Below, one piece after another: positions 15,032-42,875 of a stretch of DNA of 64,000 bases. The stretch's first letter is position 1. Every line of letters starts with the position of its first letter. The DNA is from Pseudosulfitobacter sp. DSM 107133 (GTDB lineage: Bacteria; Pseudomonadota; Alphaproteobacteria; Rhodobacterales; Rhodobacteraceae): assembly GCF_022788695.1 (NCBI RefSeq), contig NZ_CP085154.1, positions 1,984,001 through 2,048,000 on the forward strand. Reading direction: 5' to 3'. The notes under the pieces are model-generated. The model ran no database searches, was not told the DNA's origin, and saw only the letters and a program-made list of their open reading frames with translations. Made by a program: the position numbers and the translations under genes.

Positions 15032-15328
15032 CTACCGCAGTGATTTAGCTTTGATGCGTGTCACCAGATCGGTGTCATCCACGAAGTTATCAAGGAACTC
15101 ATGCCATGTTTTGTTGGTGATGCGAGCGGCGCGGATCATTTCCTTCAACTCTTCGATCCCGTCATCGGTCAGTGCGGTGATTGTTTCGTCGGGTCCGACG
15201 TAGATGCTGACGATGTTTCCATAGGTCAGGTTGTCGTCGTTGTAGATGATCGCTTCAAGAAGTTCGGCATCCTCACCCAACATTCTGGCGACGTAATCGA
15301 TAGTGCAAACATGGGTCACCGCAGCCAT
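15032..15328 (-). CDS. IS66 passenger protein, unknown function
   Basis: A 98-residue acidic protein starting MAAVTHVCTIDYVARMLGED. Its ATG is taken at 15328, overlapping the end of tnpC, and the stop lies 15 bases from the IS end. It has no membrane span and no motif that I can assign; helices dominate (GIEELKEMIRAARIT, KTWHEFLDNFVDD). Its position wholly inside the element and coupled to tnpC shows that it travels with this IS. I believe similar proteins accompany other alphaproteobacterial IS66 elements, but this could not be checked here. Confidence 0.75.
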   Translation of the reverse strand: MAAVTHVCTIDYVARMLGEDAELLEAIIYNDDNLTYGNIVSIYVGPDETITALTDDGIEELKEMIRAARITNKTWHEFLDNFVDDTDLVTRIKAKSLR

Positions 15329-16941
15329 CAGGCGGCCTTTGATTGTGCAGTTGCCAGCGGCACCCAATTCCACGGCAGCAGTTCATCCAGCCGGTTGATC
15401 TTGTGATCGTGGATACGGTCGAAGATGTCAGCCAGATAGGCCAGCGGGTCAAGGCCGTTGAGCTTGGCCGTTTCGATGATGGTCATAGCGCGGGCCAAGG
15501 TTTCCGCACCGGTATCTGCCCCTGCAAATAACCAATTCTTACGTCCAATTCCAATCGGTCGCAGGGCACGTTCAGCAGGGTTGTTGTCGATGGCCACACG
15601 TCCATCGGTCAGAAATAGGCTGAAGGCCTCCTGTCGACTGAGGCCGTAGCGGAAGGCTTTGGCCAGGTCGCTTTTACCCGGGATGCGCAGAAGCTGTTGT
15701 TCGGACCAGACAAAGAAGGCCTCGACTTGTGGGCGGCTGAGCTTTTGACGCGTCGCATAACGGACGTCAGCGGGCTGACCGTTGATGTCTCGTTCAATAT
15801 CGTAGAACTTGCCGATCCGGTCGAGTGCCTCGCGGGCGATCTCGGACTTGGTCGAGGCCCAAAAATCGTGGAAGTCTCGGCGCAGGTGAGCCCAACAGGC
15901 CGCCTCGCGTAAACGCCGCGTGCCATCGGGGTCAGGCTCATAGAGCTTGGCATAACCCTTGTAGCCGTCAGCCTGAAGGATGCCGCGGGCGTTGGCCAGA
16001 TGGCCGAGAACATGCTCTTCCTTCCAGTCTGGCGCAAAGCGATAGACAGCACCCGGTGGCGATGCCCCCGCCCAAGGGCGTTGATCGCGCACATAGGCCC
16101 AGATCCGGCCTTGTTTAACCCCTTTGCCAAGCCCCTTGTCGCGCAAAGAGCGATCCAGCACCCGGATGGGTGTGTCGTCCGCATGCAGCAGGTCGCTGGC
16201 CATGATGTCAGCCTCGATCCGCTCGATCAGCGGCGACAGGGTTTTCATGGCGCGGCCACACCAGCCTACCAGCGTGCTTTCGGGAATGTCTGCCCCCATT
16301 CGCGCGAAGATCTCGTGTTGGCGATATAACGGAAGGTGGTCGTCAAACTTCGAGACCAGCACATGTGCGAGCAGGTTCGGCCCTGCCATGCTGCCCGGGA
16401 TCGGACGGCTGGGGGCCGGTTCCTGCACCATCCGCTCACAACGGCGACAGGATTTCTTGATCCGGGCGATCTGGATCACCTTCATCTGGGCGGCGATCAT
16501 GTCCAGCAATTCGCTGACATCCTCGCCTACCACGCGCAGGTCGCCGCCGCAGTCAGGGCAGCAGGTGCCGGGGTCCAGTTCACGACGCTCGCGCGGGGTC
16601 GTATCCGAAACCCGTGGTCGGCGGCGCAAAGCGGGCGCATCAGCAGTGTCTGGTGACGGTTCATCCTGCCCTTCGTCGATGGGGGCTTCATCGCCTTCAG
16701 CCACCGCGACCAATAAATCTTCCAGCGCCAGTTCCAACTGTTCGATCTCGCGCTCGATCTTTTCCGAGGATTTGCCAAAGGCCAGTTTCTGCAACTTGGC
16801 GATCCGCAGGCGAAGCGCCTGAACCAGCTGGTCATGAACCCGCAACGTAGCCGATATCTTGGCATTCTCCGCTTGCAAAGCCGCGATCATCGCCTTCAAC
16901 ACAGCGGGGTCATCGGGGAGGTTTTCGGCGTGTTTCGACAT
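15328..16941 (-). CDS. tnpC: IS66 transposase TnpC (DDE type)
   Basis: A 537-residue transposase. The N-terminus is a leucine-rich coiled coil (LQAENAKISATLRVHDQL), followed by a zinc-binding segment (CCPDCGGDL, then SCRRCERMVQEP). The DDE core has Asp in LLHADDTPIRVL, Asp in ILQADGYKGYAKLYE and Glu in NNPAERALRPI. The C-terminus is IS66-typical (LDELLPWNW). The start is set at ATG 16941 (MSKHAENLPDD); an upstream ATG at 16956 would add five residues. It catalyses transposition with TnpA and TnpB. Confidence 0.93.
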   Translation of the reverse strand: MSKHAENLPDDPAVLKAMIAALQAENAKISATLRVHDQLVQALRLRIAKLQKLAFGKSSEKIEREIEQLELALEDLLVAVAEGDEAPIDEGQDEPSPDTADAPALRRRPRVSDTTPRERRELDPGTCCPDCGGDLRVVGEDVSELLDMIAAQMKVIQIARIKKSCRRCERMVQEPAPSRPIPGSMAGPNLLAHVLVSKFDDHLPLYRQHEIFARMGADIPESTLVGWCGRAMKTLSPLIERIEADIMASDLLHADDTPIRVLDRSLRDKGLGKGVKQGRIWAYVRDQRPWAGASPPGAVYRFAPDWKEEHVLGHLANARGILQADGYKGYAKLYEPDPDGTRRLREAACWAHLRRDFHDFWASTKSEIAREALDRIGKFYDIERDINGQPADVRYATRQKLSRPQVEAFFVWSEQQLLRIPGKSDLAKAFRYGLSRQEAFSLFLTDGRVAIDNNPAERALRPIGIGRKNWLFAGADTGAETLARAMTIIETAKLNGLDPLAYLADIFDRIHDHKINRLDELLPWNWVPLATAQSKAA

Positions 16942-17003
16942 GCGCCTGACTACCAAAAGTCAGGTTAAAACGCCATATAAATAACGTGAATCCTAGCGCA
17001 CAA

Positions 17004-26791: not shown

Positions 26792-27751
26792 TCAAGCGAG
26801 TTGAGTAGTCCATTTCTGCCGACTTTTGCAAAGGGCGTTCACGATTGTCACAAGCTTTCTTGCGACGGCGGTGATTATCACTTTGTGTGGTTTTCCGGCT
26901 TCGCGAAGGCGGTCTGCGAACGGCTTCAGGACGGGATTGTGGTGACTGGCGACGAGCGCCGCCTGGAACATAACGTGTCGCAGCGGGCGCCGGCCGCCTC
27001 CGATAGCGCGCTTGCCCCGCATCGCGCCGCTGTCATGGGCAATGGGCGCAAGGCCTGTCAGCGCGGCGGCTTGTTCGCCCGTGATCTGGCCGAGTTCCGG
27101 CATTTCAGCGATCAACATCGTGCTGGCGACCGGGCCAATGCCGGGAACTGAACGCAAGATGGCAGCAGTCGTGGCAAGGCCTTCCTCTGAGGCGATGATC
27201 TGTTCGATCCGGACCTCAAGTCCTGCAATCTGGCGATCCAGTAGGTCTTTCAGGTCACCATCCATGACGTCGAACAGATCATCCGAACCCAGTTTCGCAT
27301 GCGCCTTGATTTGCGCCAAAAGCCGTTTGCGTGTTTCGACGAGCTGACCACGCTTGGACACCAAAGCCCTGAGAAGACGTATCTTTTCATGCGGCAAGGT
27401 CCGCCCTGCATCAGGCCGAAAGGCCATGAACCGCGCGATAAGCTCCGCGTCGATCCTATCCGTTTTCGCCCGCGTGCCCCGGCTGGCGGCAAAGGCTTTG
27501 ATTTGCGCGGGCGGCAGTTGCCTGGTCGCGACCCCTGCAACGTCGAGGGCCGACCACAGACGCCATTCCTGCCCCCCTGTGGCCTCAAAACAAACCAGCG
27601 CACAGGCTGACTTTGCCAGGGCGCCCACGCGCGCATGCCCGTCCTCGGAATTGGGCAATCGAAGTCTCTGATTGCTTGGCAGGCAATGAATGTCCAGCCA
27701 ATCGCGGCTGACATCTATGCCAAGGATTGCGTCTCGTGTTATCCTGTTCAT
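26792..27751 (-). CDS. IS110 family transposase (DEDD recombinase), copy 1
   Basis: A 319-residue recombinase. The N-terminal RuvC-like DEDD domain has ILGIDVSRDWLDIH, VCFEATGGQEW and TDRIDAELIARFM. A coiled coil follows, and then the C-terminal Tnp domain has SVPGIGPVASTMLIAE and GLAPIAHDSGAMRGKR with the probable catalytic Ser. The start is set at ATG 27751 (MNRITRDAILGID); further upstream the frame runs into the RNA-coding left end. The gene looks intact. Confidence 0.92.
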   Translation of the reverse strand: MNRITRDAILGIDVSRDWLDIHCLPSNQRLRLPNSEDGHARVGALAKSACALVCFEATGGQEWRLWSALDVAGVATRQLPPAQIKAFAASRGTRAKTDRIDAELIARFMAFRPDAGRTLPHEKIRLLRALVSKRGQLVETRKRLLAQIKAHAKLGSDDLFDVMDGDLKDLLDRQIAGLEVRIEQIIASEEGLATTAAILRSVPGIGPVASTMLIAEMPELGQITGEQAAALTGLAPIAHDSGAMRGKRAIGGGRRPLRHVMFQAALVASHHNPVLKPFADRLREAGKPHKVIITAVARKLVTIVNALCKSRQKWTTQLA

Positions 27752-27925
27752 GTTCTCTTCCTTCTGATCCGTGGTCCAAGCTGGCCACAAGCAACTGTTC
27801 GAGATGGATGAAGAGAGACAGTGCTGGCTCGCTAGCAAACGTGGTCCCAGTTCAACTTGGGCCACAAGGCTCTGACGCCATACAACGTCCCGTCAGTGAC
27901 CTCGGCCAAGGTCGCTGACGGGGGA
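27752..27925 (-). ncRNA. candidate bridge RNA of IS110 copy 1
   Basis: The region upstream of the transposase folds into three parts on the minus strand. First is a 14-bp 5' stem-loop (27889-27923, one mismatch). Second is a target loop with guide CAGAGCCT (27867-27874), a hairpin (27841-27865) and guide TTTGCTAG (27832-27839). Third is a donor loop with guide ACAGTTGCT (27790-27798), a hairpin and guide CAGAAG (27761-27766). The donor guides match the element ends (26778-26786 and 27946-27951). The target guides match the insertion site with one mismatch each. Architecture follows the published IS110 bridge RNA; the exact RNA ends are not known. Confidence 0.7.
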
Positions 27926-28043: not shown

Positions 28044-31000
28044 TCAATGGAAATCCCGGCTCGGGAACAACCGCTTCGCCTGTTCTCGCGGATGACGGGC
28101 ACGCGGCGGGTAGCGCGGCGGGCGAGGCGCGTCGTCGGCTTGGGGCTGGGTGATGCCGATGGCGTTGTCGAGCGGGTGACCCAGCTCTGAGAGCTTGTAC
28201 GACAGGTCTTCGATGTGATCGGCGATGAGGTGGACGACGATGCCTTCGCGCTCCAGCCGCCCGGTGACGCGCACAAGTCGTCCTCCCATGACAATGCGGC
28301 GGAAACGGTCGTAGACTTTGGGCCAGACCACCACATTTGAGACGCCGGTTTCGTCTTCGAGCGTCAGGAAGATCACGCCTGAGGCCGTGCCGGGACGTTG
28401 CCGGGTGATGACGAGGCCGCAGACCGTGGTGCGGATGAGGGGCGCGACGGGCAGGCGGTCATGCGGCGTCAGGCCGGGGAGTGAGGGGCGCAAAAGTTCC
28501 ATCGGATGAGCGCGGAGCGTCAGGCGCAGAGCGACGTAATCCTCCACCACTTCCTCGCCCAGATGCATGTTGGGCAGGATCACCTCCGGCTCGCGAATGC
28601 CCTCGCCATCGAGCGGATCGGCGAACAGCGGCAGCGGTTTGGGGGCCCGGATCGCGCGCACCTGCCATAGCGCGTCGCGGCGGGTCAGCCCCATGCCGAT
28701 GAACGCGTCTGCCTCGGCCAGTCGTTCAAGCACGGAGGGCGTGACGCCCGCCCGGAGCCAGACGCTTTCTGGGTCTTGGTAACCGTTGCCGCGCGCCGCT
28801 GTGATCCAGCCCGCGTCCTCTTCGCGAAAGCCTTTGATCTGACGAAACCCGAGCCGGAGCGCCAGCGCCCCGTCGGCGCGGCGTTCCAACAGGTTGTCCC
28901 AGTTGGAATGGTTCACACAGACGGGCCGCACCACAACACCATGGTCGCGCAGGTCCCGCACGATTTGTGCGGGGGCGTAAAACCCCATCGGCTGGGAATT
29001 CAGCAAGGCACAGGCAAACACCGCCGGGTGGTGGCATTTGAGCCAGGACGACACATAGGTCAGCATGGCAAAGGCCGCCGCGTGGCTTTCGGGAAAACCG
29101 TAATCGGCGAAACCTTCGATCTGGCCGAAACAGGCCATGGCGACCTCTTCGGAATATCCGTTCTCCATCATACCGCGCACAAACCGGTCACGGTGCTCGC
29201 CGATGGTGCCCATGCGCCGAAAGGAGGCCAGCGAGCGGCGCAGCTTGTCGGCCTCCTCTGCTGAATAGCCAGCGCCAACGACAGCGATCTGCATCGCCTG
29301 TTCTTGAAACAGCGGCACGCCGAGGGTTTTGCGCGTGACCTCTTCGAGAGCGGGGCCAAAGGGTTCGGGGGCCTCCAATCCCTGACGCCGCCGGATATAG
29401 GGTTTGACCATCCCGCCCTGAATGGGGCCGGGGCGCACGATGGCGACCTCGATCACCAGATCGTAAAAGGTCGCGGGGCGCATGCGCGGCAGGAAATTCA
29501 TCTGCGCCCGGCTTTCGACCTGAAACACCCCCACCGCATCGGCGCGTTGCAGCATATCATAGGTCGCGCGGTCCTCTTGCGGAACGGTGTCGAGGGTAAG
29601 CCGGGTCTTCTCGTGCGCGTCCAAAAGATCGAAGCTTTTGCGCAGGCATGTGAGCATCCCGAGGCTCAGAATATCGACCTTGAGAATGCCCAAAGCGTCG
29701 ATATCGTCCTTGTCCCATTCGATCACCGTGCGGTTTTCCATCGCGGCGTTTTCGATGGGGCAAAGCTCGTCGAGACGCCCGCGCGTGATGATGAACCCAC
29801 CGACATGCTGGCTCAGGTGACGCGGAAATCCGATGATCTCGCCGATCAGTTCAATCGTCTGCGCCAACCGCCGGTCCTTGGGATTGAGGCCCAGCTCTTT
29901 CGCCCGCTCCATATCCGCACCCGAATTGGTCAGCCCCCAAATGTCGCCCGAGAGCCGCGCGGTGAGGTCTTGGGACAGGCCCATGACCTTGCCGACCTCG
30001 CGAATGGCGGCGCGGGTGCGGAAATGGATCACGGTCGCACAAAGTCCGGCGCGGTGGCGACCGTATTTCTCATAGATCCACTGGATCACCTCCTCGCGGC
30101 GTTCGTGTTCGAAATCCACGTCGATATCGGGGGGCTCGCCGCGATGGCGGGAAATGAAGCGCTCGAACACCATGCCGATCATGTCGGGGGACACATCGGT
30201 GATGCCCAGAAGATAACAGAGGATGGAATTGGCCGCCGAACCACGCCCCTGGCAAAGAATTCCGCGTGCGCGGGCCTCCCCAACGATGTCATGGACGGTG
30301 AGAAAATAGGGCGCGTACCGCAGCTCGCCGACGAGATTTAACTCCTTTTCTATCAGATCATGCACACGCTGCGAGACGCCATGCGGATAGCGGCGTTTTA
30401 TCCCCTCGCGCGCCAGTCGGTCGAGCCGGGTCTGAGGTGTCTCGCCCTCTGACATCTCGTCGGGATATTCATAACTCAGTTCCGAGAGATCGAAACCACA
30501 GCGCGCGGCGATCTCCAACGTGCGTTTGAGCGCTGCCGGATGGTTGCGATAGAGCCGCGCCATGTCGGCGGCGCCCTTGAGGCGACGTTCGGCATTGGGC
30601 AGCGCTTTCGTGCCGATCCGGTCGATGGTCAGCCCCTCGCGCAGACAGGTCAGCACATCCGCGAGCCTGCGCCGCCGCCCGTGATGCATCAATACATCGC
30701 CGACCGCCACCATCGGGGTCGAACACCGAAGCGCCAGCGCGGCACAGGCGTCGAACCACGCCTGATCGGAGCCGTCATATCGCGGCGCGGCCCCGAGAAA
30801 GACGTGACCGGGGTAACGGCGTTGCAGCTTTTGAAGGGCCGGTTGAGCACAGGGGAGATCCTTTGGCGGCAGGGCAATGAGGATCATCCCCTGACATCCC
30901 GCCTCCAGATCGCTCAGATCGAGATGGCATTCGGCCTTCTCCGCTCGTCGTTTGCCCAAGGTCAAAAGTCGCGACAGCCGATGATAGGCGGCACGGTCCG

Positions 31001-31391
31001 TGGGCAGTGCCAGCCATTCGACGGGGCAATCGCGCAGGACAAGCCGGGTGCCGACGACGAGCTTCGGCAGTTTCGGCATGGCGGGGCATGGCAAGTCGAC
31101 GGGGGAGCCGAATTCCTGCCGAGAACAGGGATCGATCTGATGCGAAGAGCGCACGCGAAGCTGTTCGGCGGCCTCTTCGCGGAGTGTCTTGAGCGCCGAA
31201 TACGCCCGCACCACCCCGGCGAGCGTGTTGCGGTCGGTGATCGCGATGGCCTCCACCCCCAGCTCGGCGGCGCGCAGGATCAGTTCTTCGGGATGCGAAG
31301 CGCCTGTGAGAAAGGTAAAGTTCGAAGTGACGCAAAGCTCGGCGTAAGAGGCGGGCTGGGGATGAGTATTTGGACTGCAATGAAGGCTCAT
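28044..31391 (-). CDS. dnaE2: error-prone DNA polymerase DnaE2 (ImuC)
   Basis: A 1115-residue C-family polymerase of the DnaE2 group. The N-terminal PHP domain has YAELCVTSNFTFLTGASHPEE-type sequence, then the polymerase core has GRGSAANSILCYLLG, PDIDVDFEHERREEVIQWIY and DILSLGMLTCL. A late OB fold has TASGVIFLTLEDETG. It carries out mutagenic translesion synthesis with ImuA and ImuB after DNA damage. The start is taken at ATG 31391, overlapping the imuB stop by four bases, so the long upstream extension of the frame is not used. Confidence 0.95.
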   Translation of the reverse strand: MSLHCSPNTHPQPASYAELCVTSNFTFLTGASHPEELILRAAELGVEAIAITDRNTLAGVVRAYSALKTLREEAAEQLRVRSSHQIDPCSRQEFGSPVDLPCPAMPKLPKLVVGTRLVLRDCPVEWLALPTDRAAYHRLSRLLTLGKRRAEKAECHLDLSDLEAGCQGMILIALPPKDLPCAQPALQKLQRRYPGHVFLGAAPRYDGSDQAWFDACAALALRCSTPMVAVGDVLMHHGRRRRLADVLTCLREGLTIDRIGTKALPNAERRLKGAADMARLYRNHPAALKRTLEIAARCGFDLSELSYEYPDEMSEGETPQTRLDRLAREGIKRRYPHGVSQRVHDLIEKELNLVGELRYAPYFLTVHDIVGEARARGILCQGRGSAANSILCYLLGITDVSPDMIGMVFERFISRHRGEPPDIDVDFEHERREEVIQWIYEKYGRHRAGLCATVIHFRTRAAIREVGKVMGLSQDLTARLSGDIWGLTNSGADMERAKELGLNPKDRRLAQTIELIGEIIGFPRHLSQHVGGFIITRGRLDELCPIENAAMENRTVIEWDKDDIDALGILKVDILSLGMLTCLRKSFDLLDAHEKTRLTLDTVPQEDRATYDMLQRADAVGVFQVESRAQMNFLPRMRPATFYDLVIEVAIVRPGPIQGGMVKPYIRRRQGLEAPEPFGPALEEVTRKTLGVPLFQEQAMQIAVVGAGYSAEEADKLRRSLASFRRMGTIGEHRDRFVRGMMENGYSEEVAMACFGQIEGFADYGFPESHAAAFAMLTYVSSWLKCHHPAVFACALLNSQPMGFYAPAQIVRDLRDHGVVVRPVCVNHSNWDNLLERRADGALALRLGFRQIKGFREEDAGWITAARGNGYQDPESVWLRAGVTPSVLERLAEADAFIGMGLTRRDALWQVRAIRAPKPLPLFADPLDGEGIREPEVILPNMHLGEEVVEDYVALRLTLRAHPMELLRPSLPGLTPHDRLPVAPLIRTTVCGLVITRQRPGTASGVIFLTLEDETGVSNVVVWPKVYDRFRRIVMGGRLVRVTGRLEREGIVVHLIADHIEDLSYKLSELGHPLDNAIGITQPQADDAPRPPRYPPRARHPREQAKRLFPSRDFH

Positions 31392-32842
31392 GCGAATTCC
31401 CCCTGCACGAACCAGCCGGGGTTTTGCGGCGTGTGATAGAGCCAGAGGCGGCGTCCTTCGCGGGTCTCGATCCGCCAGTAGTCGCGCACGCCGGAGCGCC
31501 ACGCGTCATCCGACAGCCACCATTCCGCCGCGATGCGTTCGGGGCCGATGGCGCGCCCGGTGGTGAGCGACATGCTGCGCCATCGGAAGCGGGCGGGCGG
31601 CTCTGAGCCTTGAGCGGCTATCGGTTCCGGTGGAAACAGGCGCAGCGGGCGCGGGCGCAGGCAGAACCACGCGCTGTCGGGCATGCTGAAGGCGGCGGGT
31701 GCGATGGTAAAGCTACGCTCCGGAATGTGGCTGTCGGCGGGGAGAAAGCGTTGGATGTTTTCCAATCCGATGCGTGTGCCGATGCGGGTGATCAGGTCGT
31801 TGAGCTGATCAGGCGAGGTTTGGACGTTGCCGATCTGTTGCACGGGGAGCGGTTCGACCTGTATGGCCTCCAGCCGGATTTGGTCGATGCCAAAGCCCGC
31901 GTCCACCTCGCCCACGCCGCGTTCGAAGAGCGGCAGGATGCGGTGCGGATCGCGCATGGGCGCGGCGAGGCGCAGATCGACCTGCTGGCTTCCCTGATCG
32001 ACCCGGCGCAGGGTCAGCGTAAGGTGGCGCGCGCCCATTTCATGGCGGTTAAGCTTGTCACACAGCGGGGTCAGAAGCCGCGCGGTGAGCCCCATCACAT
32101 CTTCCTTCAAACCGATTGGCTCAGGCAGGCTCATGCGGGTCGCAAAGCGCGGTGGCTCGACCTCGGGCATGACGGGTTCGGGGATATGGCCCATGGCTTG
32201 ATCGAGACGCAGCAGAAGATCGGGGCCGAACCGACGGGCCAGGGGTGCGCGGGCGGCCCCCGTCAGATCGCCAATGCTGCGCAGGCCGAGACGTTGAAGT
32301 GCGGTGACGGTGGCCTCTTCAAGGCGCAGCGCGGCCACTGGAAGATCGGTGAGCGCCTCTGTCCCTGTGCCGAAATGGGCAAAGGCCCAAGCCGCACCAC
32401 GGGTCGCTGCACAGCCCAGGCGGAGCGTCAGCCCGGCGCGTCTCGCACGGCTCTGAATATCCGCCAGCATCTCAGCTTCTCCGCCCCAAAGGTGGGTTGA
32501 GCCGGTGACATCCAGCACCAACCCGTCCGTGCCATCGCGCCCAACCCAAGGGCAATAGTGCGTCGCCCAGCGGCGCAGGGTGGCGAGAAAGCGGGCGTCG
32601 AGATCGGGGCGCGCGGGCTGGCTGATCAGGTCGGGGCAAAAGGCGCGGGCATCGGCAAAGCTCGTGCCGCGCGTCAGGCCGAGCCGTTCGGCGGTCTCGT
32701 TGAGGCAATAAATCCGTTCGGTGTTGTTCGACTTGAGCGTGATCGCGAAGGGGCCATCAAGTGGGCGCAGTCGCAGAACCCGGTCGCTCGCCAACCGGGG
32801 AAACCACATGCACACGACGCGTTTTTTGATCCCATCGAACAT
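31388..32842 (-). CDS. imuB: ImuB, inactive Y-family polymerase homologue
   Basis: A 484-residue protein of the DinB/UmuC-like family used as a hub in the mutasome. It has VVCMWFPRLASDRVLR, TAERLGLTRGTSFADARAFC and LVLDVTGSTHLWGGEAEML in place of an active polymerase palm. The C-terminal part contains the extended ImuB domain. ImuB links DnaE2, ImuA and the beta clamp. The start is set at ATG 32842 (MFDGIKKRV), inside the imuA end; a TTG at 32854 is an alternative. Confidence 0.93.
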   Translation of the reverse strand: MFDGIKKRVVCMWFPRLASDRVLRLRPLDGPFAITLKSNNTERIYCLNETAERLGLTRGTSFADARAFCPDLISQPARPDLDARFLATLRRWATHYCPWVGRDGTDGLVLDVTGSTHLWGGEAEMLADIQSRARRAGLTLRLGCAATRGAAWAFAHFGTGTEALTDLPVAALRLEEATVTALQRLGLRSIGDLTGAARAPLARRFGPDLLLRLDQAMGHIPEPVMPEVEPPRFATRMSLPEPIGLKEDVMGLTARLLTPLCDKLNRHEMGARHLTLTLRRVDQGSQQVDLRLAAPMRDPHRILPLFERGVGEVDAGFGIDQIRLEAIQVEPLPVQQIGNVQTSPDQLNDLITRIGTRIGLENIQRFLPADSHIPERSFTIAPAAFSMPDSAWFCLRPRPLRLFPPEPIAAQGSEPPARFRWRSMSLTTGRAIGPERIAAEWWLSDDAWRSGVRDYWRIETREGRRLWLYHTPQNPGWFVQGEFA

Positions 32843-33335
32843 TCCAGGCCCCAACCGTTCCCGATTTGTTCTTTTTAATTTCCCATCGCATCAGAGTCGA
32901 GTCTTCGCTGTGTGTGTCAAAGATCGGCGCGGCATGCCAACGGGTCTCGGCCGCGTTTGACCCCATGCCTTCGGGAATGATGCAAAGCCCGGTCGTGCCG
33001 CCTGCCTTGGCCGCGAGTTGCAACCGCCGCCCCTCGCGCAGGTTCAACGGGCGCGTGATCTCAATGACGACAAAGGGGAGCGCACCGTCTTTCAGCGCCT
33101 CCTCGGCCACGGCGAGCGCGTCGATCTGCTCCTTAGGGCGCGCCAGAAGAAGCCGCGTCGGATCAAGATAGCGCAGGAGTCCCTGAGGCGTGATCGTGTC
33201 GCCGAGCCAGCCCTCACGGATCCAGAGCGCCCCATCCCCCACCGACATCGCCGCAAATCCCATCGCAACAGGCCCGCAGACCTCATGGACGCGGGCGGGC
33301 CGGAGCGGAAAGATATCTCGAAGATCGACTCGCAT
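32757..33335 (-). CDS. imuA: ImuA, SOS mutagenesis accessory protein
   Basis: A 192-residue RecA-like-fold protein of the ImuA type (MRVDLRDIFPLRPARVHEVC, PTRLLLARPKEQIDALAVAE and VVIEITRPLNLREGRRLQ). It is the first gene of the imuA-imuB-dnaE2 cassette and overlaps imuB by 86 bases, which is common in this family. The start ATG 33335 is favoured by the family N-terminus; a TTG at 33371 would add 12 residues and would overlap the SOS box. A likely LexA site lies 27 bases upstream. Confidence 0.9.
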   Translation of the reverse strand: MRVDLRDIFPLRPARVHEVCGPVAMGFAAMSVGDGALWIREGWLGDTITPQGLLRYLDPTRLLLARPKEQIDALAVAEEALKDGALPFVVIEITRPLNLREGRRLQLAAKAGGTTGLCIIPEGMGSNAAETRWHAAPIFDTHSEDSTLMRWEIKKNKSGTVGAWNVRWDQKTRRVHVVSPVGERPGSATAPT

Positions 33336-41121: not shown

Positions 41122-41689
41122 CTAGAAACGAAGGGTCATATCGGTGCCCTGACCGACAACCGACAGCTTGCGCCCTGCGTCCGCAACAACAGCGGGCAGC
41201 AGGGCAAATTGCACATGCGCGGGCTGTATTTCCTGCGGCACGATCGCACTTTCCAACCCTTCCCACAGCGCGGAATCGACGTTCAGCTTCTCGCCGCGCC
41301 CGTGCACGGTCCAGCGTTCGCGTTCGCAGGTTACCTCGATCCGGCCCCCATAGGGCATTGCCGTTTCCAGACATTGAATCGCCAGAAACGCCATGCGCAC
41401 CGCATCGCGCGGCTGTTCGTCCATTGGCCCCCAGGCCACGGTCAAACGGCCAGTGCCCATCAGATCGCGCAGCACGCTGACAATCTCGGCGCGGCCCATT
41501 TCCTGATCACCTGCCGCCCCGTAAGCGATGCGAAAGAACCGGATGCGCGCCGTGGCATTGCCGACCGATTCAGAAATCAGCTGGATCTCCGGCCCGTCGT
41601 TGCTGCCGGTCATCTCTAACAGCTCCAGCCCATTGTTGATCGCGCCAATGGGGGATATGAGATCGTGACAGATGCGGCTGCCAATCAAG
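41122..41689 (-). pseudogene. chpT: chpT, 3' part cut off by IS110 copy 2
   Basis: The fragment encodes LIGSRICHDLISPIGAINNG and then NGLELLEMT, the first helix with the phospho-accepting His of the histidine phosphotransferase ChpT. The degenerate kinase-like C-terminal domain follows, ending GTDMTLRF. ChpT carries phosphate from CckA to CtrA. The first ten codons and the ribosome site lie on the far side of the IS at 42845-42875. A start codon here (ATT/TTG at the junction) has no native ribosome site, so expression is doubtful. Removal of the IS restores a frame of about 198 residues. Confidence 0.9.
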
Positions 41690-41701
41690 TATCCGTCTTG
41701 G

Positions 41702-42646
41702 TCAAGGGTGTTTTGGTGTCCATTCTCTGTTTTCGCTTATGAGAGTGTTTGCGAGGATCAGGAGTTTTCGCATGAGGACGGCGAGCGCGACCTTGTGGGG
41801 TTTTCCGGCGGCTCTGAGGGCATCGTATTTCTGGCTCAGATCGGGGTTTCGCTTCATGGCGACGAGGGCGGGCATGAACAGGCTCTCGCGCAGGAGCCTG
41901 CGCCCGCCCTGGATGTGGGCCTTTCCGCTCCACTGACCGGACTGACACGTGATCGGCGCGAGACCTGCGAGCGCCGCGATCTGCTTTGACCCCAGAGTGC
42001 CGATCTCGGGGCATTCGCTGAGCAGCGCCCGTGCGGTGATGGCACCGATCCCGGGGATCGAGGTGAGAATGCCGGTTGCCCTGGCGCGTTCCGGGCAATC
42101 GCGGTTTCGCCGTTCGATTTCGGCGTTAAGCCTGTCGATCTGGTGGTTGACCTGACGCAGGCGTGCCCGGGTCAGGCGGCGGGTCACGTCGAGCTGTTGC
42201 GTGCCAAGGCGGTTCATCAGCGCGGTACGATCCCGCACCAGCCCGGTGCGGGCGACATGCAACTCCTTGATTTCACGCTGTTTGGGGTCGGTTGGCTGGT
42301 CCGGAACCAGCTCCAGCGCGCGCCCCATGAGCGCGAGCATGCGGGCATCGACCGCGTCGGTCTTAGCGCGTGTGCCGTGGGCCTGCGCGAAGCGGCGGGC
42401 CTGCAGCGGGTTCACCTTGACGAGCGGCAGGCGGCCTGAGAAATGGCTCTCGAGGCGTCGGTGGTAGGGGCCGGTGGGCTCGAAGACCACGCGCTCCGGC
42501 GTTGTCTGCCCCAACCAGCGCTCGAAGGCGCGCAGGCCTGTCGCGGTATTGTCGAACCGGGCGTGGGTTGCGGTGCTGAGCCGGTGCGCGTCAAGATGCG
42601 CTTTCGAGATGTCGATGCCGATGGTATCGTTGATCATCTTCGTCAT
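41702..42646 (-). CDS. IS110 family transposase (DEDD recombinase), copy 2
   Basis: A 314-residue recombinase: DTIGIDISKAHLDAH (Asp), VVFEPTGPYHRRLE (Glu), TDAVDARMLALMG (Asp-Asp). A helical middle part follows, then the Tnp domain with SIPGIGAITARALLSECP and GLAPITCQSGQWSGKA with the probable catalytic Ser. It is only distantly related to copy 1 but of the same group. The stop lies 12 bases from the right end of the element. Confidence 0.92.
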   Translation of the reverse strand: MTKMINDTIGIDISKAHLDAHRLSTATHARFDNTATGLRAFERWLGQTTPERVVFEPTGPYHRRLESHFSGRLPLVKVNPLQARRFAQAHGTRAKTDAVDARMLALMGRALELVPDQPTDPKQREIKELHVARTGLVRDRTALMNRLGTQQLDVTRRLTRARLRQVNHQIDRLNAEIERRNRDCPERARATGILTSIPGIGAITARALLSECPEIGTLGSKQIAALAGLAPITCQSGQWSGKAHIQGGRRLLRESLFMPALVAMKRNPDLSQKYDALRAAGKPHKVALAVLMRKLLILANTLISENREWTPKHP

Positions 42647-42842
42647 GTCCTTTGCTTGTCGTGCAGAGCCTGTGAGCTGCTGCGTATCCGTTCAGGCCTC
42701 ATGCGAAGACGACGGGCGATCTCACTTGATTACGGTCCTCGAAGACCTGGCCGCAGACGATCCACCCGTCGCCGGTGCCTGCGATCCAAAAGGTGGCTGG
42801 CACCGGCTCCACCTTCGCAGAAGAGCCACGGAAAGTCTGAGA
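42647..42842 (-). ncRNA. candidate bridge RNA of IS110 copy 2
   Basis: On the minus strand the left end has a CCGGTGCC/GGCACCGG stem. A target loop follows, closed by CGACGGG/CCCGTCG; it holds guide GCGGCC (42749-42754), a hairpin (42734-42747) and guide AATCAAG (42725-42731). A donor loop then holds guide ACGGATAC (42684-42691), a GCAG/CTGC hairpin and guide GACAAG (42655-42660). GCGGCC and AATCAAG match chpT left of and across the insertion core (GCGGC-CT-TGATT). ACGGATAC and GACAAG match the right and left ends of the element. True transcript ends are unknown. Confidence 0.8.
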
Positions 42843-42844
42843 CA

Positions 42845-42875
42845 AGGCCGCCAGATTGACGTTACTGGTGCCCAT
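42845..42875 (-). pseudogene. chpT: chpT, 5' fragment (first ten codons)
   Basis: ATG at 42875 with AGGAGG just upstream encodes MGTSNVNLAA and the start of a Leu codon, the usual N-terminus of ChpT in this group. It is then cut by the IS110 element. Joined to 41122-41689 it gives NLAA-LIGSRICHD in frame. The start is only 26 bases from the DUF3553 gene reading the other way. Confidence 0.9.

What the first reader, a model, noticed from the sequence alone, without database searches (positions are those of the whole stretch)
41686..42875. IS110 copy 2: a readable bridge RNA whose target guides match its own insertion site in chpT
The 198-base non-coding left end holds two guide loops. In the target loop GCGGCC (42749-42754, minus strand) equals the chpT sequence left of the core, and AATCAAG (42725-42731) is the complement of the core plus right side CT-TGATT. 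In the donor loop ACGGATAC (42684-42691) equals the right end of the element (41689-41696), and GACAAG (42655-42660) is the complement of its left start. Both pairs frame a small hairpin, and the target loop is closed by CGACGGG/CCCGTCG. All four guides fall in the order and polarity known for IS110 bridge RNAs, so programmed insertion into chpT can be read from sequence alone.
Basis: partly seen in the sequence, partly recalled or inferred. Interest (0 to 1): 0.92.

Follow-up and report, generated by a model that had tools for sequence, protein, structure and literature searches.

The report
RNA-guided IS110 element inside chpT
A small jumping gene in a marine bacterium carries a guide RNA whose letters match the place where it sits; such elements are already known, and this one is aimed at a family of short repeats and met the gene chpT because that gene carries the same letters by chance.

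Summary
The element (1157 bp with one CT core, window 41690-42846, minus) has 18 near-identical copies in this genome, a Pseudosulfitobacter by inference. Across relatives the target guides covary with the flanks: left 4.25 of 6 positions matched against 2.69 in shuffles (32 guide sets), right 3.84 of 5 against 1.67 (31 sets). In the RNA fold 24 of 30 counted pairs show changes on both sides. It is an IS110-group element with a bridge RNA: a new member of a known kind.
Two corrections. The programme is aimed at REP-like palindromes, which hold 16 of 18 copies; chpT is a chance 12-base match absent from five congeners. And the left guide is read loosely: all 18 sites have CTTGATT, only 8 have GCGGC before it. 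Within the repeats occupancy falls with left-guide match: 8 of 8, 7 of 11, 0 of 2, 1 of 22. IS621 also targets REPs with some mismatch tolerance (PMC11208160). Transcription, mobility and any restart of chpT are untested.

The parts
41690..42846 (-). IS110 element, 1157 bp with one copy of the CT core
   Evidence: ends fixed by 18 copies in different flanks; positions
41702..42646 (-). recombinase gene, 314 aa, DEDD/Ser type; D12, E56, D97, D100, S236 (positions checked) align with IS621 D11, E60, D102, D105, S241
   Evidence: Pfam PF01548 and PF02371; NCBIfam NF033542 'IS110 family RNA-guided transposase' over cut-off; PDB ISCro4 E 4.2e-33, IS621 E 4e-28; IS621 residue numbers from PMC11208158
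42655..42834 (-). bridge RNA region; true 5' and 3' ends not known
   Evidence: fold of 42647-42846 z -3.37; 24 of 30 pairs with changes on both sides in 38 sequences, 37 distinct
42749..42754 (-). left target guide GCGGCC (CTGCGGCC 42749-42756 matches 7 of 8 type-1 repeats)
42725..42731 (-). right target guide AATCAAG, complement of CT-TGATT
42710..42716 (-). closing stem of target loop, 3' arm CCCGTCG
   Evidence: helix 2, 98.0% of cells paired, 5 of 8 pairs with changes on both sides
42765..42771 (-). closing stem of target loop, 5' arm CGACGGG
42684..42691 (-). left donor guide ACGGATAC
42655..42660 (-). right donor guide GACAAG, complement of CT-TGTC
41690..41696 (-). left donor half ACGGATA (right end of the element)
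42841..42844 (-). right donor half TGTC (left end of the element)
42845..42846 (-). CT core at the left junction
41688..41689 (-). CT core at the right junction
42847..42851 (-). left target half GCGGC, in chpT
41683..41687 (-). right target half TGATT, in chpT
42847..42875 (-). 5' piece of chpT from its ATG (42873-42875) into codon 10
   Evidence: same start region in five congeners
41122..41689 (-). 3' piece of chpT with the HPTransfase domain; TTG 41686-41688 is chpT codon 11, in frame at the junction
   Evidence: Pfam PF10090 E 1.4e-30; ORF; codons
41700..41705 (-). TTGACC, -35-like box of a promoter that would form across the joined ends
   Evidence: TTG-N3 at this place in 50 of 50 elements listed
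42834..42839 (-). CAGACT at the -10 position
   Evidence: TATNNN in 33 of 34 and TATGAN in 20 of 34 relatives with both ends read

Best explanation
This is a cut-and-paste IS110-group insertion sequence. Its recombinase (DEDD RuvC-like domain plus a serine domain) carries a bridge RNA made from the left end. The donor loop reads the joined ends of the excised circle (ACGGATA-CT-TGTC); the target loop reads GCGGC-CT-TGATT, and the two CT cores are exchanged. In this genome the target loop fits the hairpin foot of a family of REP-like repeats, and 8 of the 9 exact 12-base matches found are filled. chpT was hit because in this species codons 9-12 (GCG GCC TTG ATT) spell the same 12 bases. Shown: element ends, guide-site match, RNA covariation, occupancy gradient, uninterrupted chpT in congeners. 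Inferred from homology to IS621: transcription, circle, chemistry and present mobility.
For: 18 copies differ from the window copy by 0-3 SNPs and sit in different flanks, while repeat flanks differ by up to about 24% in the 40 of 68 flank matches listed: recent, mostly separate insertions. All 18 have CTTGATT. The exact 12-mer GCGGCCTTGATT is filled 8 times (7 repeats, chpT) and empty once. Repeat occupancy by left arm: GGC 8 of 8, GTGC 7 of 11, GAGC or GCGC 0 of 2, GCAC 1 of 22 (Fisher for GTGC against GCAC p 5e-4). Guide-flank covariation: left z 9.6, right z 10.9, 0 of 20,000 shuffles each. RNA: 95.6% of cells paired against 76.7% shuffled. Protein. None of five congeners' uninterrupted chpT genes has the 12-mer at that place.
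Against: Half of the own sites fit the left guide poorly at the register that fits chpT (9 of 18, 1-3 of 6 positions); L017 fits only one register over (5 of 6, or 6 of 6 with rG:dT). Among GC|CTTGATT sites with a left edit distance of 2 or less, repeats are filled 15 of 21 times, other places 1 of 11, so guide match alone does not explain occupancy. One exact match (L047, read again as L190) is empty. In relatives the own flank is not the best fit for 13 of 32 left and 9 of 31 right guides. The window's single-sequence fold pairs most of both donor guides. The expected junction promoter has a poor -10 box. No RNA or mobility data.
Confidence: 0.94

Rival explanations
1. The recombinase recognises the REP-like hairpin itself, and the guide match is a by-product or only helps.
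For: 16 of 18 copies sit in these palindromes; at a left edit distance of 2 or less repeats are filled 15 of 21 times, other sites 1 of 11.
Against: Within the repeats occupancy follows the guide. Two copies lie outside the repeats. Among relatives only 6 of 31 sites are unusually stable hairpins (one is the 97% sister in the same repeat type, two are one element). Survival could give the same bias: insertions in genes are lost, those between genes are kept.
Confidence: 0.15
2. Protein-only site choice; the guide-like matches in the left end are chance.
For: The 6-base guides alone are weak: GCGGCC occurs in 5,454 of 50,000 shuffles.
Against: 0 of 50,000 shuffles hold all four; guides and sites covary over 32 and 31 distinct guide sets.
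Confidence: 0.01
3. The guide resembles the site because the element picked up flanking sequence after landing, not because the guide chose the site.
For: No direct evidence; it would also make guide and flank agree.
Against: The guide letters are the same in all 18 copies (the SNPs are at element positions 43, 149, 403 and 771), while the sites are of several kinds.
Confidence: 0.01

Closest known systems
IS621 (Escherichia coli), IS110 group, bridge RNA; PMC11208160 and PMC11208158
   Same: Recombinase homologous over residues 9-300 (E 4e-28) with the five catalytic residues aligned; non-coding end upstream of the gene; target loop then donor loop, each with a left and a right guide; CT core; REP targets (144 of 173 insertion sites in the authors' assay); rG:dT tolerance reported there.
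   Different: Target letters (GCGGC-CT-TGATT), host (Roseobacteraceae) and the repeat family; no PF01797 (REP-associated transposase type) protein was found in this genome.
ISCro4 (PDB 9t56)
   Same: Closest solved recombinase by sequence, E 4.2e-33.
   Different: Only its sequence match was seen; its RNA and target were not compared.
ISPpu9, ISPpu10, ISPa11, ISRm19, ISRm22: insertion sequences found in REPs (PMC1525189, outline and abstract seen)
   Same: Insertion into repetitive palindromes.
   Different: Not compared by sequence here. ISPa11 is of the IS1111 type (PMC11187229, passages).

Membership tests
IS110 group with bridge RNA | DEDD RuvC-like domain plus serine Tnp domain | tested here: met
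   PF01548, PF02371; NF033542 at 205.3 bits against cut-off 140; residues aligned with IS621
IS110 group with bridge RNA | long non-coding end upstream of the gene, short downstream end | tested here: met
   198 bases upstream (42647-42844); 12 bases from the stop codon to the core (41690-41701)
IS110 group with bridge RNA | structured RNA with two internal guide loops | tested here: met
   target loop and donor hairpin covary; the openness of the donor guides is not shown by the window's own fold
IS110 group with bridge RNA | target guides complementary to the target, covarying between elements | tested here: met
IS110 group with bridge RNA | donor guides complementary to the joined ends | tested here: met
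   exact in the window. Not counted over all relatives: L084 agrees in a changed left donor guide (AAGGGATAC in guide and end), L050 and L104 have one mismatch
IS110 group with bridge RNA | insertion without target duplication beyond the core | tested here: met
   18 junction pairs; only CTTG is repeated, the core plus TG that donor and target share
IS110 group with bridge RNA | promoter rebuilt across the joined ends | tested here: inconclusive
   TTG-N3 in 50 of 50 and TATNNN after a 17-base spacer in 33 of 34 relatives, but CAGACT here
IS110 group with bridge RNA | transcribed RNA bound by the recombinase; circular form | not testable with these tools
   needs RNA-seq, binding assay and PCR
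classical REP with RAYT | Y1 transposase (PF01797) in the genome | tested here: not met
   0 matches in the own genome; the control rings in 5 of 14 named genomes, E. coli among them; hence 'REP-like'

The most novel reading that the evidence does not exclude
The element is an RNA-guided insertion sequence whose right end gives an interrupted gene a new start. Both insertions outside the repeats (chpT after codon 10, a DUF2306 gene after codon 7) are in the gene's own direction and near its start, with the target's TTG in frame 13 bases after the recombinase stop codon, so the gene could be restarted by coupling to recombinase translation. Landing in C-TTG-ATT near a start would then spare the gene and be kept by selection.
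Probability: 0.2. Interest if true: 0.5.

Novelty: new member of a known kind. Interest (0 to 1): 0.4.

Why it matters
Bridge-RNA elements have been studied as programmable tools since 2024. This genome is a natural test of their rules: one guide, 18 recent insertions, and a countable set of filled and empty sites in one repeat family. It suggests that core plus right half is read strictly and the left half loosely, and it shows how an element that mostly lands in repeats can hit a regulator gene when codon drift spells the target.

Tried and rejected
Hairpin targeting as a rule of this branch: not supported; 6 of 31 relatives' sites rank in the most stable 5% of 200 random windows from their own flanks, median rank 0.645. 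A one-base DNA bulge as a general feature of left pairing: not supported; gain 13 against 17.0 +/- 3.6 by shuffle, although it would fit the GTGC repeats. Wobble: allowing it does not sharpen the left signal (z 8.7 against 9.7). Rfam: 5 matches at E 1-4.3, none near its gathering score. One search (two mismatches) listed only part of its hits; some searches were used instead. Left-guide scoring with core offsets 8-9 (3.19 against 2.30, z 5.5) missed register 7, which many relatives use; one search repeats it with 7-9, the same freedom being given to the shuffles. The offset range was widened. Rows dropped: of 69 rows (window included), 38 had left guide and flank and 37 right guide and flank; dropping the window and same-record duplicates leaves 36 and 34, and one per distinct guide set 32 and 31; the other rows were lost to contig ends, degraded copies or motif misses. 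Related elements remain in these sets, so the z values are not strict probabilities. One search aligned 38 of the 43 sequences prepared. One search used 43 of the 56 empty GCCTTGATT places: 13 of the 14 that fall inside copies of the other IS110 gene (positions) were left out as repeats. A notebook entry (9 type-1 copies, 10 filled exact sites) was wrong; the report gives 8 and 8.

Full report
Observation. The four guide segments, the stem arms and the ends are at the stated places. With one CT core the element is 41690-42846 (minus), 1157 bp. In 50,000 dinucleotide shuffles of 188 bases of the non-coding end none held all four guides and 3 held three. Single 6-base guides are not convincing alone.

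Host. The genus is inferred: the same-genus genome G002 has the sister copy on a 131,106-base contig (listed), which is NZ_FQVP01000009.1 of Pseudosulfitobacter pseudonitzschiae DSM 26824.

Copies. The own genome (5.21 Mb, 13 contigs) holds 18 copies, 0-3 SNPs from the window copy. Eight sit in type-1 repeats (foot GCGGCGGCCTKCGGC|CTTGATTCCG), seven in type-2 repeats with a GTGC arm, one in a type-2 repeat with a GCAC arm, one in chpT (the window) and one in a DUF2306 gene (L017; Pfam E 2e-15; the gene start is my reading). Flanks gave 68 matches of 100 bases or more, 40 of them listed: mostly left flanks of one repeat type, 129-219 bases at 76-99% identity; the closest are L002/L003 (99.4%) and L004/L007 (96.1%); L002 and L009 also share 641 bases because they are neighbours. 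Since most flanks differ more than the elements do, I read the insertions as separate events. The repeats are thus larger mosaics than short REPs. No PF01797 protein was found.

Filled and empty sites. All 18 filled sites read CTTGATT. Exact GCGGCCTTGATT: 8 filled, 1 empty (L047). Empty hairpin-foot repeats: 27 (27 of the 28 places, read; the same 27): 21 with a GCAC arm, 4 GTGC, 1 GCGC, 1 GAGC. No empty type-1 repeat with a GGC arm was found (one search's spacing fits type 2 only). Filled of all: GGC 8 of 8, GTGC 7 of 11, GCGC or GAGC 0 of 2, GCAC 1 of 22. Fisher, tables entered by hand: GTGC against GCAC p 5e-4; GGC against all others p 9e-5. Seventy-six one-mismatch places are empty and one is filled (L002). 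Of 43 empty GC|CTTGATT places read, 37 are outside the repeats. At a left edit distance of 2 or less, repeats are filled 15 of 21 times and others 1 of 11 (p 0.002). I read that bias as survival of insertions between genes rather than hairpin recognition, but the data do not separate the two. Repeats whose TTGATT has changed were not searched for.

Relatives. Protein searches gave 17 of 394 family genomes at E 1e-60 or better, own genome included, and 59 loci in the named genome collection. Guides were taken by fixed motifs in the RNA, without looking at the flanks. Left: 32 guide sets, 136 of 192 positions matched, 4.25 per element against 2.69 in shuffles, z 9.6, own flank best or joint best for 19 of 32. 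Right: 31 sets, 119 of 155 matched, 3.84 against 1.67, z 10.9, best or joint best for 22 of 31. Three of the four poorest right matches (L099, L103, L109; the fourth is L080) have right flanks like the element's own left end TGTCT (3, 5 and 5 of 5; 30 others 0-2), as if the donor loop had chosen the target; donor-like off-targets are reported for IS621.

RNA. 38 sequences aligned. The consensus leaves both target guides unpaired between a covarying stem and a covarying hairpin. Of 30 pairs counted, 24 have changes on both sides; 95.6% of cells pair against 76.7% in shuffles and at most 58.1% when slid. Left out of that count: the pairing of the right donor guide with the left end, nearly invariant and implied by its being a guide to that end, and two pairs that take the GG of the left donor guide, almost without variation. 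In the window's own fold (z -3.37) the left target guide is open, while 2 of 7 bases of the right target guide, 5 of 8 of the left donor guide and all of the right donor guide are paired. Whether that holds in the complex is unknown.

Protein. Pfam and NCBIfam place it in IS110. ISCro4 and IS621 are the solved relatives. D12, E56, D97, D100 and S236 lie on the IS621 residues D11, E60, D102, D105 and S241 named in PMC11208158 (passages), by my reading of the printed alignment.

chpT. It is the only match to PF10090 in the own genome. In five congeners the gene is uninterrupted there and reads CTGGCCGCTCTGATC (two), CTGGCCGCTTTGGTC, CTGGCCGCGTTGATC or CTGGCGGCACTTGTC; none holds the 12-mer. The window species has GCG GCC TTG ATT at codons 9-12. 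Both genic insertions keep the target's TTG in frame, 13 bases after the recombinase stop; n is 2 and restart is a guess.

Sister element. P. pseudonitzschiae DSM 26824 has a copy 97% identical in protein, and strain H46 has one on a conjugative plasmid, 97.8% identical in DNA. Both carry GCAGCC in the left guide and sit in a type-1 repeat reading GCGGC, one mismatch; by their flanks it is probably one and the same site.

Literature seen. PMC11208160: passages and sections 6 and 9. PMC11208158: passages. PMC11187229: passages. PMC1525189: outline and abstract. Searches 'bridge RNA' + 'IS110', 'REP sequences' + 'IS110' + 'insertion sequence', 'bridge RNA' + 'repetitive extragenic palindromic' and 'Pseudosulfitobacter' + 'IS110' (0 papers) listed nothing whose title or abstract start names this element; the library lacks most subscription journals.

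Verdict. A well-supported, natural, multi-copy example of a known mechanism. It is useful as a data set on guide tolerance, not a new kind of system.

Noticed in passing
window 26792-27865 (-): The second IS110 gene belongs to a different element (38% protein identity; 13 near-full and 1 partial match in the genome). Of 14 places fetched, 12 aligned and 11 had flanks printed against the window copy: right flanks after GTTGCTAG vary, left flanks mostly end in GG. Its guides were not read.
   Followed up: partly
window 41700-41705 and 42834-42839: Joined ends would give TTGACC-17-CAGACT; 33 of 34 relatives have TATNNN at the -10 place. The box seems decayed here and in the P. pseudonitzschiae copy.
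   Followed up: partly
L103, L109, L099 right flanks: Right flanks resemble the element's own left end TGTCT, not its right target guide: possible donor-loop-chosen sites or tandem junctions.
   Followed up: partly
L050, L108, L130, L134 left flanks: Relatives inserted at the foot of long palindromes (AGAGCG...CGCTCTAG type), another repeat.
   Followed up: no
L017 junction: Element interrupts a DUF2306 gene after codon 7; the left guide fits this site only in a register shifted by one base, with one rG:dT pair.
   Followed up: partly
window 28044-32854 (-): Long ORFs beside the other IS110 look like an error-prone DnaE2 and ImuB pair, from recall of the sequences only.
   Followed up: no
window 15328-16956 (-): A 542-aa ORF looks like an IS66-type TnpC transposase, from recall only.
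   Followed up: no
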